The position numbers and the translations under genes are program-made. The notes beneath the pieces are model-generated. The model did no database searches. It was not told the DNA's origin and saw only the letters and a program-made list of their open reading frames with translations. Below, one piece after another: positions 2,079-29,285 of a stretch of DNA of 64,000 nt. Source of the DNA: Cetobacterium sp. 8H (GTDB lineage: Bacteria; Fusobacteriota; Fusobacteriia; Fusobacteriales; Fusobacteriaceae); NCBI RefSeq assembly GCF_014250675.1, contig NZ_JACHTG010000003.1, forward strand, positions 1 through 64,000, read 5' to 3'. Each line of letters starts with the position of its first letter. Position 1 is the first letter of the stretch.

Positions 2079-2675
2079 TTAATCTTTATAATTTTTTAAT
2101 ATATTTTTAAATAATTTTAATTTTCTGTTGTTTATATCTAATTTATTATTTTCAGTTTCATGATTATTCAAAAAATCATTTACAATATTTAAAATTGAAT
2201 CAGTTTTAAATTGCTTAGCTTTTGCAAGAAGTTTAAAAGCATAAGGATTATTTAAAAAGACAGCTATATAGAAACCACGATCAAAATTAAAATTGTATTT
2301 TAGAAAAATTTTTACAAATTGTTCAGTTTTATTTTTAGACATTTTTAAGTTTCCTAAACAGTAAAGAGGGACTAAATCTTTTCCTTTAACATAAGAATTA
2401 AGATTTCCACCAAGAGTTAAAATCATATCAAAAAGTATGGGATCTTCTTTTAGAATAAGTGCCCTATGTAAAGGGGTTAATTTATCTTTTTTTCCAAAGC
2501 TATTTATATTTTTACCAGAAATAATCTCTTCTAATTCAATAACTTTATCTTCAAAGTTAGGTAGATAGCTAAAAGTTTCTGAAAGTAGACCTATTCGTGC
2601 AGCTCTCACACCAATCTCATTGTTTAAAGATTGGAAGATAGTTAAAGCATCATTAAATTTATTCATTTTTAACAA
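2079..2675 (-). CDS. Ankyrin-like tail of the helicase, in the -1 frame
   Basis: 198-codon frame with no convincing start of its own. The first possible start is TTG at 2675 and the first ATG is at 2666; neither has a good ribosome site. The open frame actually extends upstream to join the helicase at 2699 (residues DSNFVGDLLLKMNKFNDA...). It holds short helical repeats and a clear ankyrin-type segment (TPLHRALILKEDPILFDMIL). It overlaps the helicase stop. Read through a -1 slip at the A AAA AAG at 2705-2699, helicase and tail make one protein of about 949 aa. I therefore regard this as the C-terminal part of the helicase gene, split either by programmed frameshifting, by a one-base deletion in an A7 run, or by a sequencing error. 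A separate translationally coupled protein is the less likely option. Confidence 0.6.
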   Translation of the reverse strand: MLKMNKFNDALTIFQSLNNEIGVRAARIGLLSETFSYLPNFEDKVIELEEIISGKNINSFGKKDKLTPLHRALILKEDPILFDMILTLGGNLNSYVKGKDLVPLYCLGNLKMSKNKTEQFVKIFLKYNFNFDRGFYIAVFLNNPYAFKLLAKAKQFKTDSILNIVNDFLNNHETENNKLDINNRKLKLFKNILKNYKD

Positions 2676-4927
2676 TAAGTCACCAACAAAGTTAGAATCT
2701 TTTTTTCTTTAAAAAAATGCAGAATCTTTTGAAGTTCTTTGTGAGTGAAAATATTATTTTCAACCCCAATTTTAATACCTTCTTTAATCTCTTTTTCTTT
2801 ATATGAAATTCCAAAGATTTTATTACATTCTATTGCTTCTATAAATAATGAATTATCAATAGAAGTATCTATAATTAGTTTCTTATAATAATTTTGTTTT
2901 CCTTTTAAATTTGTTGAATTTATTTTTTTTATAGCATTTTTAAACAAAAATTCAGAAATATCATTTTCAATTTCCCTCTCTAAAATCCAAGTAGGTTCAC
3001 CAGCTTTCTCAAAAGCATATCTAGCTTCTTCAATCTTTTCAAGTTTAAATAGTTTAATACCTTCATTTAACCATTCAGATTTTTCTTTTTTTAAACTTTG
3101 GACTTTTTTATCAATAATAATGTTGTTATTTGGAGTTAAAAAATCATGTAGTTCTTTTAAAATTATATTGGAATCAATATTTTCTTCCATTATAATAAGT
3201 TTTTCTTGTGCTCTTGTGATGCCAACATAGAATATATTAAAATATTTTCTATATCGTTGATCATGCTTTGCTTCTTTAGAGAAAATTTTATTCCATTGAT
3301 TCTGATATGCAGAGGATAGATTGTAACAAATAATATTATTGTATTCTAATCCTTTAATCTCTTGAATAGTAAAGATTCTATGTTTATTTTTCAATTTTTC
3401 TAAAAGGTTATTTTTAATAATTTCATCTGGAACAACAATAGCATAAGTGACATCATTTTGAGCTTTCTCAATAAGAGGGAGATTAATCTGTGTAAGGTTA
3501 ACTTCACCATCTTTATGAATAGAAACCTCTTTATAGTCATCAATTCCTAAATTTCCAATATATTCAGTTCTAAGAGTTGAAAAATAATTGGCTAAGTCCA
3601 CAATTTTTTTACAACTTCTATAATTTTTAGAAAGTATTTTAATATTTATATTTTTTTGAGCTTTTGAATAGAAAAGATTTTTTATTCTCTCAAAATTAAA
3701 AAATGTAGAATTAACCATTTGATGAATATCACCAGCTAAAAATATATTATCTTTTGATTTTGCAAAAGATATTAAAGAAAATATCTGTATTTCTGTTAAA
3801 TCTTGAATTTCATCAATAATAATAAAATCAAAACTTAGTTTAAGATTTAAAGCTAGCCTAGCTAGATCATTTAAATCAAAATACTCTTTTTCTTTTAACC
3901 ACTGATTATAGTTTTGACAGATAGCAAACATTTTTTTTCTAGTTTCAATATCTAAGACAGAGTATTTAGAGCTTAAGTTTAAATAGTCTTCTAGTTCGAT
4001 TGTTGGTTTAGAAGTATCTCTATCCCAGTTATCTGCAATTCCTTTAATCATAAGACCTTTAATAATACCATTAATTTCAGAATATATCTCCTCGACAGAA
4101 ATAGGGAATTTTTTACGATTAGGATAGGAAAGAGAAAAAAAAGAATTAAATTCGTTAAATCCCACAATTCTATTTTTAGAAATCCCTAACTGTTTTGTAA
4201 AAAAATTTTTAAGCGTATAAAAATTTCCTATACTAGGGGATGAACTGCTTCTGAACTCTTGATATTGTTCAAAAGAGTTGTCTTTGAGATACTGGTTGGC
4301 AGTTAAATAAAGAACATTTTTATAATTATAACTAAAATAATTTTCTTCTAAATTTAAAAGCTTTCTAAGTGTAAGCGTACTTTTTCCACTTCCAGCACTT
4401 CCAGCAACGAAATATGGGGGTAAATCATTTAGACAGCTAAATTGCTCATCATTTAAATAATAGTATCTATATTTTTTATTAGAAAAGTTTTCAGAAAAAT
4501 CTTTATCATCTAACATTTCATAAGTAATTAAATTGTTCCAATTAAAATAAACTTCATCTAAAGTTTCAATATTATCTTCATTATCAAATGTAATAAATTC
4601 TTTTAAATTTGAACTCTGTAATTCTTTTCTTTTCGCTTTTTTTATAGCATTGTCGTGAGAAGAATATAGTAAAAAAATAATATTACCATCAATTTCTCTT
4701 GATAAATTATTTAATAGAAAAAAAATCCGGTCACCGCTATCAACTCTAAATTCAAACAGAGATGTAGTACCTTTAATTTTTTTTATCCAAAATCCTTTTG
4801 GTAAATCATATGATAAAAGCTTATTTTGCTTTATTGTATTATAAAAATAATAGAGTTTATTTAAAACCTTGTTATTTTTTTCATTGGGAACACTCTTAAA
4901 AAAATAATCTGTAATTAAAAATTTCAT
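2669..4927 (-). CDS. UvrD/Rep-type SF1 helicase with RelE-like N-terminus
   Basis: Superfamily 1 DNA/RNA helicase, 752 aa in frame 0. Seen in order: a small N-terminal domain (~20-105) with RelE/HigB-like strands (FEFRVDSGDRIFFLL, then IIFLLYSSHDNAIKKAKR); Walker A GSAGSGKST (~176-184); motif II IIIDEIQDL (~369-377); motif III LAGDIHQ (~397-403); motif IV NYRS (~435-438); motif V near IFTIQEIKGLEY (~518-529); motif VI VGITRAQEKL (~568-577). After that come ~170 residues of helical repeats (NEGIKLFKLEKIEEARYAFEKAG is TPR-like). Frame 0 ends in the abrupt tail ILTLLVTYC. I chose the ATG at 4927 because GGAG sits 7 nt upstream; the longer frame begins at a TTG (5029) with no ribosome site. A possible promoter is TTGAAT (4986-4981)-N17-TACCAT. 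DNA repair or phage-related roles are both possible; substrate unknown. Confidence 0.8.
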   Translation of the reverse strand: MKFLITDYFFKSVPNEKNNKVLNKLYYFYNTIKQNKLLSYDLPKGFWIKKIKGTTSLFEFRVDSGDRIFFLLNNLSREIDGNIIFLLYSSHDNAIKKAKRKELQSSNLKEFITFDNEDNIETLDEVYFNWNNLITYEMLDDKDFSENFSNKKYRYYYLNDEQFSCLNDLPPYFVAGSAGSGKSTLTLRKLLNLEENYFSYNYKNVLYLTANQYLKDNSFEQYQEFRSSSSPSIGNFYTLKNFFTKQLGISKNRIVGFNEFNSFFSLSYPNRKKFPISVEEIYSEINGIIKGLMIKGIADNWDRDTSKPTIELEDYLNLSSKYSVLDIETRKKMFAICQNYNQWLKEKEYFDLNDLARLALNLKLSFDFIIIDEIQDLTEIQIFSLISFAKSKDNIFLAGDIHQMVNSTFFNFERIKNLFYSKAQKNINIKILSKNYRSCKKIVDLANYFSTLRTEYIGNLGIDDYKEVSIHKDGEVNLTQINLPLIEKAQNDVTYAIVVPDEIIKNNLLEKLKNKHRIFTIQEIKGLEYNNIICYNLSSAYQNQWNKIFSKEAKHDQRYRKYFNIFYVGITRAQEKLIIMEENIDSNIILKELHDFLTPNNNIIIDKKVQSLKKEKSEWLNEGIKLFKLEKIEEARYAFEKAGEPTWILEREIENDISEFLFKNAIKKINSTNLKGKQNYYKKLIIDTSIDNSLFIEAIECNKIFGISYKEKEIKEGIKIGVENNIFTHKELQKILHFFKEKKILTLLVTYC
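2699..2705 (-). other. A AAA AAG slippery heptamer at the helicase frame break
   Basis: On the coding strand the frame-0 codons are gaA AAA AAG att. This is the same -1 slippery heptamer as in E. coli dnaX. Slipping back one base gives K-K-D-S-N-F-V and enters the open ankyrin-like frame with no stop. I do not see a strong upstream Shine-Dalgarno stimulator; a downstream stimulatory structure was not established. Confidence 0.6.
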
Positions 4928-26102: not shown

Positions 26103-29100
26103 TTAATTTTTAGGATATTCTAGTAATGATTCATCGTACTCATAGTCTTTAAAATCAGTACCATAAAATAGAGCATAAATTACTGGGATAACACCTAGAG
26201 CTAGGAAAGTATCCGTAACAAGACCAAATATTAAAACAACAGCTACTGGTTGGAATAAAGGTCCACCAAAGAAATATAGAGGAAGTAAACCAACTAAAGT
26301 TGTAGCAACAGTTAAAAATATAGGTCTAAGTCTAGATTGACATCCAAAGACAATAGCATTTTGATCACTTCTATTTAATTCATCTTTTTCAATAGTCATC
26401 TTATCGACCAGAATAATAGCATGATTTAGAACAACTCCTGCTAGAGAGATAATTCCAATCATAGCCATGAATCCTAAATCAGTCCCAGTTAAAAGAAGTC
26501 CAATAGCTACTCCTGGAATTGATAGTGGTATAACAAGCATAATACATAATCCTTTTTTTAGAGAGTTAAACTGCGCAACAACTAAGAAAAACATTCCAAG
26601 TATTGCTATAGGAACTTGCTGGAATAATGCTTGTTGGTTATCTTCAGAGGTTTGAGTTGTACCAGCAGAAGAGTATTTAACATCTGGACCCCATTCTTTT
26701 AATTTTTCTTCTAACCAAGGCATAAATACTTTATTTACTTCTAAAGGAGTAGTTGTAGACTTTACAGCAGCATCAATTTCGATAGAATAAGCCATATTTC
26801 TAGTACTAACCAAACTATCATTATATTCTAAAGATATATTTGCAATTTGTTTTAATGGAATATTTTCTCCTTTTGAATTTATTAGCTCAATAGATTGAAT
26901 CGAATTAATATCATCGTCATATTTATCTGTACCTCTTAAAACTATAGGAACTATTGTACTCTTAGGTGGAGCATCAAAATTTCTAAAAATACTAGCATTA
27001 TATCCTTGTAGAACAAATTGTAAGTCTCTACCAATAGTTTCATTTGAAAATCCAGCCATTTGAGCTTTCTCTGAATCAACTTCAACATATATTTTAGGAA
27101 CTTTTTCTCCCCAAGTATCTGTAACAGCAAATGTTCCATCAAGAGAAACTAATTTATTACGTACTTCTTCAGAAACTTTTTTAAGAAGTTCAATATCTCT
27201 TGAAGAAAAAATATATCCTAAGTCCTTGGCCAATGAAACTCCACTTCCAAGACCTTTTGAAACAACATCAATTTGAGGATATTTATTTAAAAGATAAGAA
27301 TTTACATCTTCACTAATTTTAGGTATAAGTTTATAATCTGTTAAATTATACATAACATAAGCATATTCAGGTAAGTTTGTCTGTGGAGAATAACCAGTTG
27401 AAAATCTAGGAGCACCTCCTCCAATAAAAGACCCCCAACTTAAAACACCTGCTTTCTCATAAGTTTTAGATGTTCCACCAGTAGTTATATAATCCCAAAT
27501 TCCAGGTGGGAGTCTGTCTTGTGGTCCAGTGCTATAATTAGTTTTGATGTATTTATTAAGGTCTTCTACAACTTCACGAGTGAAATTAACATCAGTTCCT
27601 TTAGGTAATGTTATATACGTTGACATAACAGGGTCAGTAGAGTTTGGCATAAAGTTACTAGGTGCTAATGTTAGCAACCAAAGTCCAAGTATAAAAGATA
27701 ATGAAGTTAATAACAGTGTTATTTTTTTCTTTTTCAGAACAGATATAAGTACAGTCCTATAGATAAGATATGGTTTACTGTTCAAATTTTGTTTTTTACC
27801 AGGATCAACTTTTATAAAATCATAACAAAGTAAAGGAATAAATGTTTGATTTATAATCCAAGAACCAAGAAGAGCTAGCATAACAACAACAGTTAACGGT
27901 CCTACATATTCACCCATATTTTCTTTATTTAAAATGATTGGTGAAAAGGCCATAATTGTTGTTAAAGAACTCACTAGTAGGGGAATTGCCAAAGTTCGCG
28001 AGGATTCTAAACAGGCATCCATTCTACTTTGTCCCTCTTCTAATAGAACCATAACATTTTCCGACATAACAACAGCATTATCAACAAGCATTCCTAATGC
28101 GATGATAAGACCTGCCAGAGTAATTTGATTTATTCCATAGCCCATATAATACAATCCTATAAGAGCAAAAGCTATTGATGTTGGCGTTAGTGCGGCTACT
28201 ATCAATCCAGAACGGATACCTAAGAAAACAAGCATTACTAATATTATAGTAAAAACAGCCTGAAAAAGATTGACAATAAAAGCAGTAACATTTGTTTGAA
28301 CTAGATCAGGAAGATAATAAATCTCTCCAACTTCTAATCCGATAGGGATATTATTTTTGAATTTTTTTAAAGTTTCTTGTATACCTTTTCCCATTAATAA
28401 AACATCTTCACCACTACCCAAAGAGATTCCTAAAACCAGAGATTGGTTTCCATTAAAATCTACTGAGTAAGGAGATGGGTCTTGATAACCTTTATATATA
28501 TTTGCAACCTCTTTAAGGTAAACACTCGATTTTCCATCAGGACTAGTTATAATTGTATTTGATATATCGTCAATATTTTTGAAATTTCCAGAAGGTGTAA
28601 TTTTCAAACGATTTTCATCAACAACTATATCACCACCTTTGATTATGACATTTAAACTGCTAAGTGTATTAAGTATATTATCTAAAGTTATACCAGTTTG
28701 CGAAAGCGTTTTATTATCAATATCAATATAAACTGCTTCATTTTGAACTCCTGTAATTTCAATACTACCTATTTGTGGAACATTAAAAAGCAAAATTTCT
28801 TTTAATTGATCTGCTGCTCGATAAAGTTCATCATAGGTGTAATCAGGTCCACCTATTGCAAGTAATGTACCATAGATATCTCCATAGAAAGTGTTTATCT
28901 GTGGAGTTTGCATTCCAGGAGGTAAGGAAGGAATAACAAAAGTATTTATTCTATCTCTTAGTTCTTGCCAAATGGGCTGAATATCTTTATATTCAGCTTT
29001 TATATTAACATATACATTTGATTGTCCGTCAGTATTTGTTGAGTTAACATACCAAAGTGAGTCCATATTTTGTACTTGCTCAGCAATTCGTTTACTAACT

Positions 29101-29285
29101 AAATCAGCCATTTGTTTAGCAGTAGCACCAGGCCAGTTTGTAGTTATAAGAGCAACCTTTATAGTAAACCCAGGGTCTTGAGATTTTTCAGATTGATCAT
29201 AAGATCTATATCCCATAAAAAGTAATAAGAAAATTATTAAATAGGTTGTAACTTTATTTTTAATCGCTAATTCGGTTAATTTCAT
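26103..29285 (-). CDS. RND multidrug efflux permease (AcrB/MexB-like)
   Basis: 1060 aa, usual length for the family, inner membrane, proton-driven. First TM helix near the N-terminus (VTTYLIIFLLLFMGY), large periplasmic loop, then TM2-6 (~335-500), a second loop and TM8-12. In TM4 the proton-relay pair is VDN (GMLVDNAVVMSENV) rather than VDD of AcrB, and in TM10 the AcrB Lys is Asn (GVVLNHAIILVD). Such variants are seen in other RND branches. Last gene of the tolC-like/adaptor/pump operon, starting 2 nt after the adaptor stop. Confidence 0.92.
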   Translation of the reverse strand: MKLTELAIKNKVTTYLIIFLLLFMGYRSYDQSEKSQDPGFTIKVALITTNWPGATAKQMADLVSKRIAEQVQNMDSLWYVNSTNTDGQSNVYVNIKAEYKDIQPIWQELRDRINTFVIPSLPPGMQTPQINTFYGDIYGTLLAIGGPDYTYDELYRAADQLKEILLFNVPQIGSIEITGVQNEAVYIDIDNKTLSQTGITLDNILNTLSSLNVIIKGGDIVVDENRLKITPSGNFKNIDDISNTIITSPDGKSSVYLKEVANIYKGYQDPSPYSVDFNGNQSLVLGISLGSGEDVLLMGKGIQETLKKFKNNIPIGLEVGEIYYLPDLVQTNVTAFIVNLFQAVFTIILVMLVFLGIRSGLIVAALTPTSIAFALIGLYYMGYGINQITLAGLIIALGMLVDNAVVMSENVMVLLEEGQSRMDACLESSRTLAIPLLVSSLTTIMAFSPIILNKENMGEYVGPLTVVVMLALLGSWIINQTFIPLLCYDFIKVDPGKKQNLNSKPYLIYRTVLISVLKKKKITLLLTSLSFILGLWLLTLAPSNFMPNSTDPVMSTYITLPKGTDVNFTREVVEDLNKYIKTNYSTGPQDRLPPGIWDYITTGGTSKTYEKAGVLSWGSFIGGGAPRFSTGYSPQTNLPEYAYVMYNLTDYKLIPKISEDVNSYLLNKYPQIDVVSKGLGSGVSLAKDLGYIFSSRDIELLKKVSEEVRNKLVSLDGTFAVTDTWGEKVPKIYVEVDSEKAQMAGFSNETIGRDLQFVLQGYNASIFRNFDAPPKSTIVPIVLRGTDKYDDDINSIQSIELINSKGENIPLKQIANISLEYNDSLVSTRNMAYSIEIDAAVKSTTTPLEVNKVFMPWLEEKLKEWGPDVKYSSAGTTQTSEDNQQALFQQVPIAILGMFFLVVAQFNSLKKGLCIMLVIPLSIPGVAIGLLLTGTDLGFMAMIGIISLAGVVLNHAIILVDKMTIEKDELNRSDQNAIVFGCQSRLRPIFLTVATTLVGLLPLYFFGGPLFQPVAVVLIFGLVTDTFLALGVIPVIYALFYGTDFKDYEYDESLLEYPKN

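What the first reader, a model, noticed from the sequence alone, without database searches (positions are those of the whole stretch)
2666..2740. Helicase and ankyrin-like tail joined by a dnaX-type A AAA AAG heptamer
Frame 0 of the SF1 helicase ends 9 codons after gaA AAA AAG att. A -1 slip on that heptamer enters a 206-codon open frame with no stop. The break falls inside a region of helical repeats, the second frame has no proper start or ribosome site, and frame 0 ends in a short atypical tail. So the native product is probably ~949 aa, either by programmed -1 frameshifting (giving two proteins, as dnaX does) or by an indel in the A7 run.
Basis: partly seen in the sequence, partly recalled or inferred. 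Interest (0 to 1): 0.7.

Follow-up and report, generated by a model that had tools for sequence, protein, structure and literature searches.

The report
One-base break in a helicase gene
A gene for a DNA helicase in a Cetobacterium-like gut bacterium is cut in two by one missing base in a run of A's, while every close relative has it whole; this is most likely a sequencing error or a fresh mutation, not a built-in frameshift switch, and so it is ordinary.

Summary
On the minus strand, an SF1 (UvrD-like) helicase frame (ATG 4927, stop 2669, 752 aa) ends nine codons after gaA AAA AAG (2705-2699). A -1 step there enters 206 open codons, and the fused product would be 949 aa. Alignment confirms that the two frames are one gene: all 11 congeners encode it in a single uninterrupted frame (the nearest is 949 aa, 86% identical), and so do more distant family members.

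The dnaX-like reading is not supported. The heptamer is not conserved as a frameshift site. Two relatives (L002, L010) carry the same A AAA AAG at the same place, read straight through in frame 0. The heptamer is common here (70 in-frame copies in 61 of 302 genes). There is no dnaX-like Shine-Dalgarno element upstream and no stable stem just downstream. The A7 run is shorter than the 9-A length that this genome's genes avoid.

The window is one nucleotide short at the A-run relative to every aligned congener. The tail shows no decay (no window-specific change at 102 conserved sites; dN/dS about 0.12), so the loss is recent or is not in the cell. In 113 kb of comparable coding sequence this is the only break found. 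Sequencing error versus recent mutation needs reads.

The parts
2669..4927 (-). Frame 0: UvrD-like SF1 helicase with the first part of the helical-repeat region, 752 aa; the last 9 codons (ILTLLVTYC) are out-of-frame sequence
   Evidence: ORF; start by alignment of N-termini; Pfam UvrD-helicase 5.9e-9, UvrD_C_2 6.4e-8, UvrD_C 1.9e-6
2699..2705 (-). A AAA AAG heptamer within an A7 run (2700-2706); the sequence is one nucleotide short here relative to all aligned congeners
   Evidence: sequence; codon alignment: relatives read GAA AAA AAG GAT (A7 then GG) or GAA AAA AAA GAC (A8 then G), the window reads A7 then a single G
2079..2699 (-). C-terminal 206 codons (DSNFVGDLL...KNILKNYKD) in the -1 frame, collinear with residues 744-949 of the nearest relative, 78% identical
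2664..2666 (-). ATG of the -1 frame two bases after the frame-0 stop; possible reinitiation start, internal Met in relatives
   Evidence: sequence; alignment

Best explanation
This is one gene encoding a 949-residue protein: an N-terminal segment, a UvrD-type SF1 helicase core, then a C-terminal helical-repeat region. In this assembly it is broken by a one-nucleotide shortfall at an A7-G tract. The shortfall is either a sequencing/assembly error (somewhat more likely, about 0.5) or a very recent slippage mutation in the sequenced strain (about 0.35). If it is a mutation, the cell makes mainly a 752-aa protein: the helicase core with the helical-repeat region cut between two helices. It would make at most traces of full-length protein by chance -1 slippage at A AAA AAG, or a separate tail by reinitiation at the ATG 2 nt after the stop. 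Shown here: single frame in relatives, one-nucleotide shortfall, intact tail with no decay. Inferred: error or mutation, and the expression consequences.
For: All 11 congeners and 8 aligned members of two other genera of the family have one uninterrupted frame of 953-1024 aa across this point. At the junction the congeners read ..KEKKDSNFVGD.. or a close variant, as A7-GG (L002, L010), A8-G (L005, L008) or interrupted runs; the window is one nucleotide short. Tail: 0 window-unique changes at 102 conserved sites, against 2 in the intact relative; dN 0.138, dS 1.14 between window and L002, close to intact pairs (L010/L011 0.128/0.93; L003/L005 0.158/1.00). It is an isolated event: the only frame break in the 113 kb of G000 coding sequence that could be compared with the nearest relative. 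PMC3711429 expects singleton frame transitions with an intact homologue to be mostly sequencing errors, with recent indels the alternative.
Against: No reads could be seen, so error and mutation cannot be told apart. The low break rate (1 in 113 kb) argues against systematic homopolymer error in this assembly, which leaves room for a genuine mutation. Tail conservation would also be expected if full-length protein were still made by frameshifting.
Confidence: 0.86

Rival explanations
1. Programmed -1 ribosomal frameshifting at A AAA AAG, as in E. coli dnaX, makes two products: a 752-aa short form and a 949-aa long form.
For: The heptamer is in the right phase, and a -1 slip gives exactly the conserved sequence EKK-DSNFVGD. 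The tail is undecayed.
Against: No congener has the frame break. The heptamer is not conserved, and two relatives (L002, L010) carry it in frame 0 of an intact gene, where a slip would truncate the protein. No purine-rich Shine-Dalgarno-like stimulator upstream (sequence CTGCATTTTTTTAAAG); no significant structure in the 55 nt starting 4 nt downstream (z -0.7), and the longer 85-nt fold reaches only z -2.1 through a hairpin about 60 nt away. The heptamer is in frame in 61 of 302 genes. Any one-base loss in an A-run makes a -1 slip there restore the product, so the exact fit is not independent evidence.
Confidence: 0.05
2. RNA polymerase slippage on the A7 run yields some mRNAs with an extra A, restoring the frame (rescue or regulation).
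For: Rescue of this type is documented at A-runs (PMC1088944). The genome is AT-rich, and the tail is intact.
Against: Selection against slippage-prone runs typically shows at nine A's (PMC1088944). In this genome's genes A7 (362) and A8 (132) are common and only A9 collapses (7), so A7 lies below the length that is avoided.
Confidence: 0.05
3. Contingency (phase-variable) switch: A7/A8 replication slippage turns the C-terminal region on and off between cells.
For: A homopolymer lies at the break, and relatives include both A7-GG and A8-G contexts. A second genome of the family (G073) has an independent break in the same gene.
Against: A7 is short and very common (362 runs in 302 genes). The run is not conserved in relatives (interrupted as GAA AGA AAG, GAA AAG AAG, GAG CGA AAA). 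The G073 break lies about 100 residues upstream and not at an A-run.
Confidence: 0.04

Closest known systems
Singleton indel frame transitions in prokaryotic genomes (GeneTack classification, PMC3711429)
   Same: Single occurrence, intact homologues in related species, no conserved frameshift site
   Different: Nothing; it fits the class described there as probable sequencing error or recent indel
E. coli dnaX programmed -1 frameshift (from general knowledge: A AAA AAG, upstream Shine-Dalgarno-like element, downstream stem-loop)
   Same: Same heptamer in the same phase
   Different: No conservation as a frameshift site, neither stimulator found, intact relatives read through the same heptamer in frame 0
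UvrD/Rep/PcrA and GajB-like SF1 helicases
   Same: Helicase core: Pfam UvrD families, PADLOC GajB models down to 1.1e-16, PcrA by phmmer for the intact relative
   Different: Has a long C-terminal helical-repeat region with weak TPR/ankyrin-like signals; NCBIfam equivalog cut-offs not reached

Membership tests
Programmed -1 ribosomal frameshift (dnaX type) | X XXY YYZ-type heptamer (A AAA AAG) in the zero-frame phase before a -1 open frame | tested here: met
   but such heptamers are common: 70 in 302 genes
Programmed -1 ribosomal frameshift (dnaX type) | Frameshift site and interrupted frame conserved among homologues | tested here: not met
   0 of 11 congeners broken; heptamer variable; L002 and L010 carry it in an intact frame
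Programmed -1 ribosomal frameshift (dnaX type) | Stimulators: Shine-Dalgarno-like element 10-14 nt upstream and stable stem-loop shortly downstream | tested here: not met
   upstream sequence is T-rich; fold z-score -0.7 for the 55 nt downstream
Programmed -1 ribosomal frameshift (dnaX type) | Both products made in the cell | not testable with these tools
   needs proteomics or reporter assay
Transcriptional slippage site | Homopolymer of a length that is slippage-prone in this organism | tested here: not met
   A7; avoidance in this genome's genes appears only at A9 (132 A8 to 7 A9); indirect test
Singleton indel or sequencing error | Intact single-frame homologues, break in one genome only at this site | tested here: met
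Singleton indel or sequencing error | Read support separating error from real indel | not testable with these tools
   no reads or conspecific genomes held
UvrD-like SF1 helicase | UvrD N- and C-terminal helicase domains above Pfam cut-off; Walker A GSAGSGKS, DEIQ box | tested here: met
   motifs read in the translation

The most novel reading that the evidence does not exclude
In this one species the full-length helicase is still made by -1 frameshifting or polymerase slippage at the A7 tract, so that a fixed one-base loss is tolerated and short and long forms coexist.
Probability: 0.06. Interest if true: 0.4.

Novelty: not a real feature. Interest (0 to 1): 0.1.

Why it matters
Mostly as an annotation caution. 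In AT-rich genomes, slippery heptamers sit in frame in about one gene in five, and a one-base loss in an A-run always looks like a perfect -1 frameshift site. Here homologues and the gene's own unmutated tail show a singleton break. If it is a real mutation, it gives a natural truncation of the helicase's C-terminal repeat region.

Tried and rejected
The reciprocal screen listed 5 apparent breaks in the relative G003, none examined individually; several are short segments at the ends of stop-to-stop queries. A search for suspect neighbouring frames in G000 gave mostly overlapping genes with GTG/TTG starts behind good ribosome sites. PADLOC GajB hits were not taken as proof of a Gabija system: they match the generic helicase core and no GajA was sought. 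The AlphaFold model (3-row alignment) is poor overall (pLDDT 54) and confident mainly over the repeat region 613-805, so no fold search was run on it. The organism's dnaX reads as a single 492-codon frame; it was not analysed further for recoding. The literature search for Cetobacterium plus frameshift found nothing relevant.

Full report
What is there. On the minus strand of the window a long frame runs from ATG 4927 to a stop at 2671-2669. Its last meaningful codons are GAA AAA AAG (2707-2699), followed by nine codons and TAA. The -1 frame is open from 2708 to the stop at 2079-2081. The start is set by alignment: relatives all begin at the Met of MKFLITDYFF, and the window has GGAGTGAATTTATG there. 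The frame-0 product is 752 aa and the joined product would be 949 aa. The nearest relative's protein from the same ATG is 949 aa. The one correction is that the second frame does have an ATG, at 2666, two bases after the stop.

One gene, not two. The window lies in a genome whose congeners include records named uncultured Cetobacterium sp.. A search of relatives found the gene in all 11 congeners, in a single open frame throughout, and in several other members of the family, nearly all in a single frame (the exception is G073, below, besides fragments at contig ends or weak matches that were not examined). Aligned, the frame-0 head matches residues 1-743 of the nearest relative and the -1 tail matches its residues 744-949, 86% and 78% identical. 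Codon by codon at the junction, congeners read GAA AAA AAG GAT TC (L002, L010), GAA AAA AAA GAC TC (L005, L008), or versions with the run interrupted (GAA AGA AAG GAT, GAA AAG AAG GAT, GAG CGA AAA GAT). The window has A7 and a single G where the others have A7-GG or A8-G: it is one nucleotide short.

Is it a programmed frameshift? The heptamer is in the dnaX phase, and a -1 slip gives exactly EKK-DSNFVGD. But any one-base loss in an A-run makes a -1 slip at that run restore the ancestral product, so the fit carries no extra weight. Against a programmed site: no congener is broken here; L002 and L010 carry the same A AAA AAG at the same place in an intact frame, where efficient slippage would cut the protein short; other relatives lack it. 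Among 302 ORFs of at least 150 aa in 400 kb of this genome there are 70 in-frame A AAA AAG sites, in 61 genes, and 274 A AAA AAA sites. The stretch upstream of the heptamer is T-rich with no Shine-Dalgarno-like element. The 55 nt starting 4 nt downstream fold no better than shuffles (z -0.7); a longer 85-nt window reaches z -2.1 because of a hairpin about 60 nt away. Of the features that define a programmed site, only the heptamer is met.

Polymerase slippage. The published threshold at which selection against A/T runs becomes visible is nine nucleotides in many genomes (PMC1088944). In this genome's genes A6, A7, A8 and A9 runs number 762, 362, 132 and 7, so avoidance sets in at A9. An A7 run is below that.

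Error or recent mutation. The tail has not decayed: at 102 sites conserved in nine outgroup relatives, the window has no change of its own (the intact relative L002 has two), and dN/dS between window and L002 in the tail is 0.138/1.14, close to intact pairs of similar distance. So the break is very recent, or is not in the cell, or is bypassed. In 594 kb of this genome compared with 1.18 Mb of the nearest relative, about 113 kb of coding sequence could be matched, and this was the only break on the G000 side. That speaks against an assembly riddled with homopolymer errors, but one residual error or one real mutation would look the same. PMC3711429 expects singleton frame transitions whose joined product matches an intact homologue to be mostly sequencing errors. 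I put error at about 0.5, recent mutation at about 0.35, and some form of functional bypass or switching at about 0.14. Reads would settle the first two.

Anatomy of the protein. The core is a UvrD-type SF1 helicase (Pfam; PcrA by phmmer for the intact relative; GajB models in PADLOC, reflecting the shared helicase core). An AlphaFold model of the nearest relative's intact protein from a three-row alignment is poor overall (mean pLDDT 54) but confident from about 613 to 805, a run of helical hairpins. The junction (743/744) lies in the turn between helices 729-741 and 745-754. 'Ankyrin-like' is weak: no Pfam ankyrin hit in the window tail or the nearest relative, only sub-threshold Ank hits in the more distant L023.

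A second, independent break. In genome G073, of another genus in the family, the same gene is split at a different place: about 100 residues upstream, not at an A-run. Two unrelated singletons in one gene do not make a conserved site. They may hint that the C-terminal part is dispensable, or simply reflect draft-assembly errors.

Noticed in passing
L072 (G073:C27), about 3174-3230 of the locus: The homologous helicase gene in another genus is split by an independent frameshift about 100 residues upstream of this one, not at an A-run.
   Followed up: partly
G000:C2:163234-164006 (L125 and the end of L124): Two overlapping frames read like pieces of a BREX PglX-type methyltransferase (...VGRVRADYLYRIKRY / SLPYQEILDNQRAYYERL...) near a contig end, possibly another frameshifted gene; named from memory of the motif only.
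   Followed up: no
G000:C2:161264-163188 (L125): A 126-aa frame followed by a 519-aa frame containing a P-loop (IIYGAPGTGKS) looks like a split McrB-like gene next to the possible BREX gene.
   Followed up: no
G000:C1:11681-12701 (-) and 28180-29200 (+) (L115, L116): A pair of overlapping frames of the same sizes (262 and 102 codons, 70-nt overlap) occurs twice in opposite orientation on a 29-kb contig, perhaps an IS element or a duplicated gene.
   Followed up: no
window 4627-4927 (-): The N-terminal segment of the helicase (FWIKKIKGTTSLFEFRVDSGDRIFFLL) resembles a RelE/ParE-type fold by eye; no Pfam hit and no confident model.
   Followed up: no
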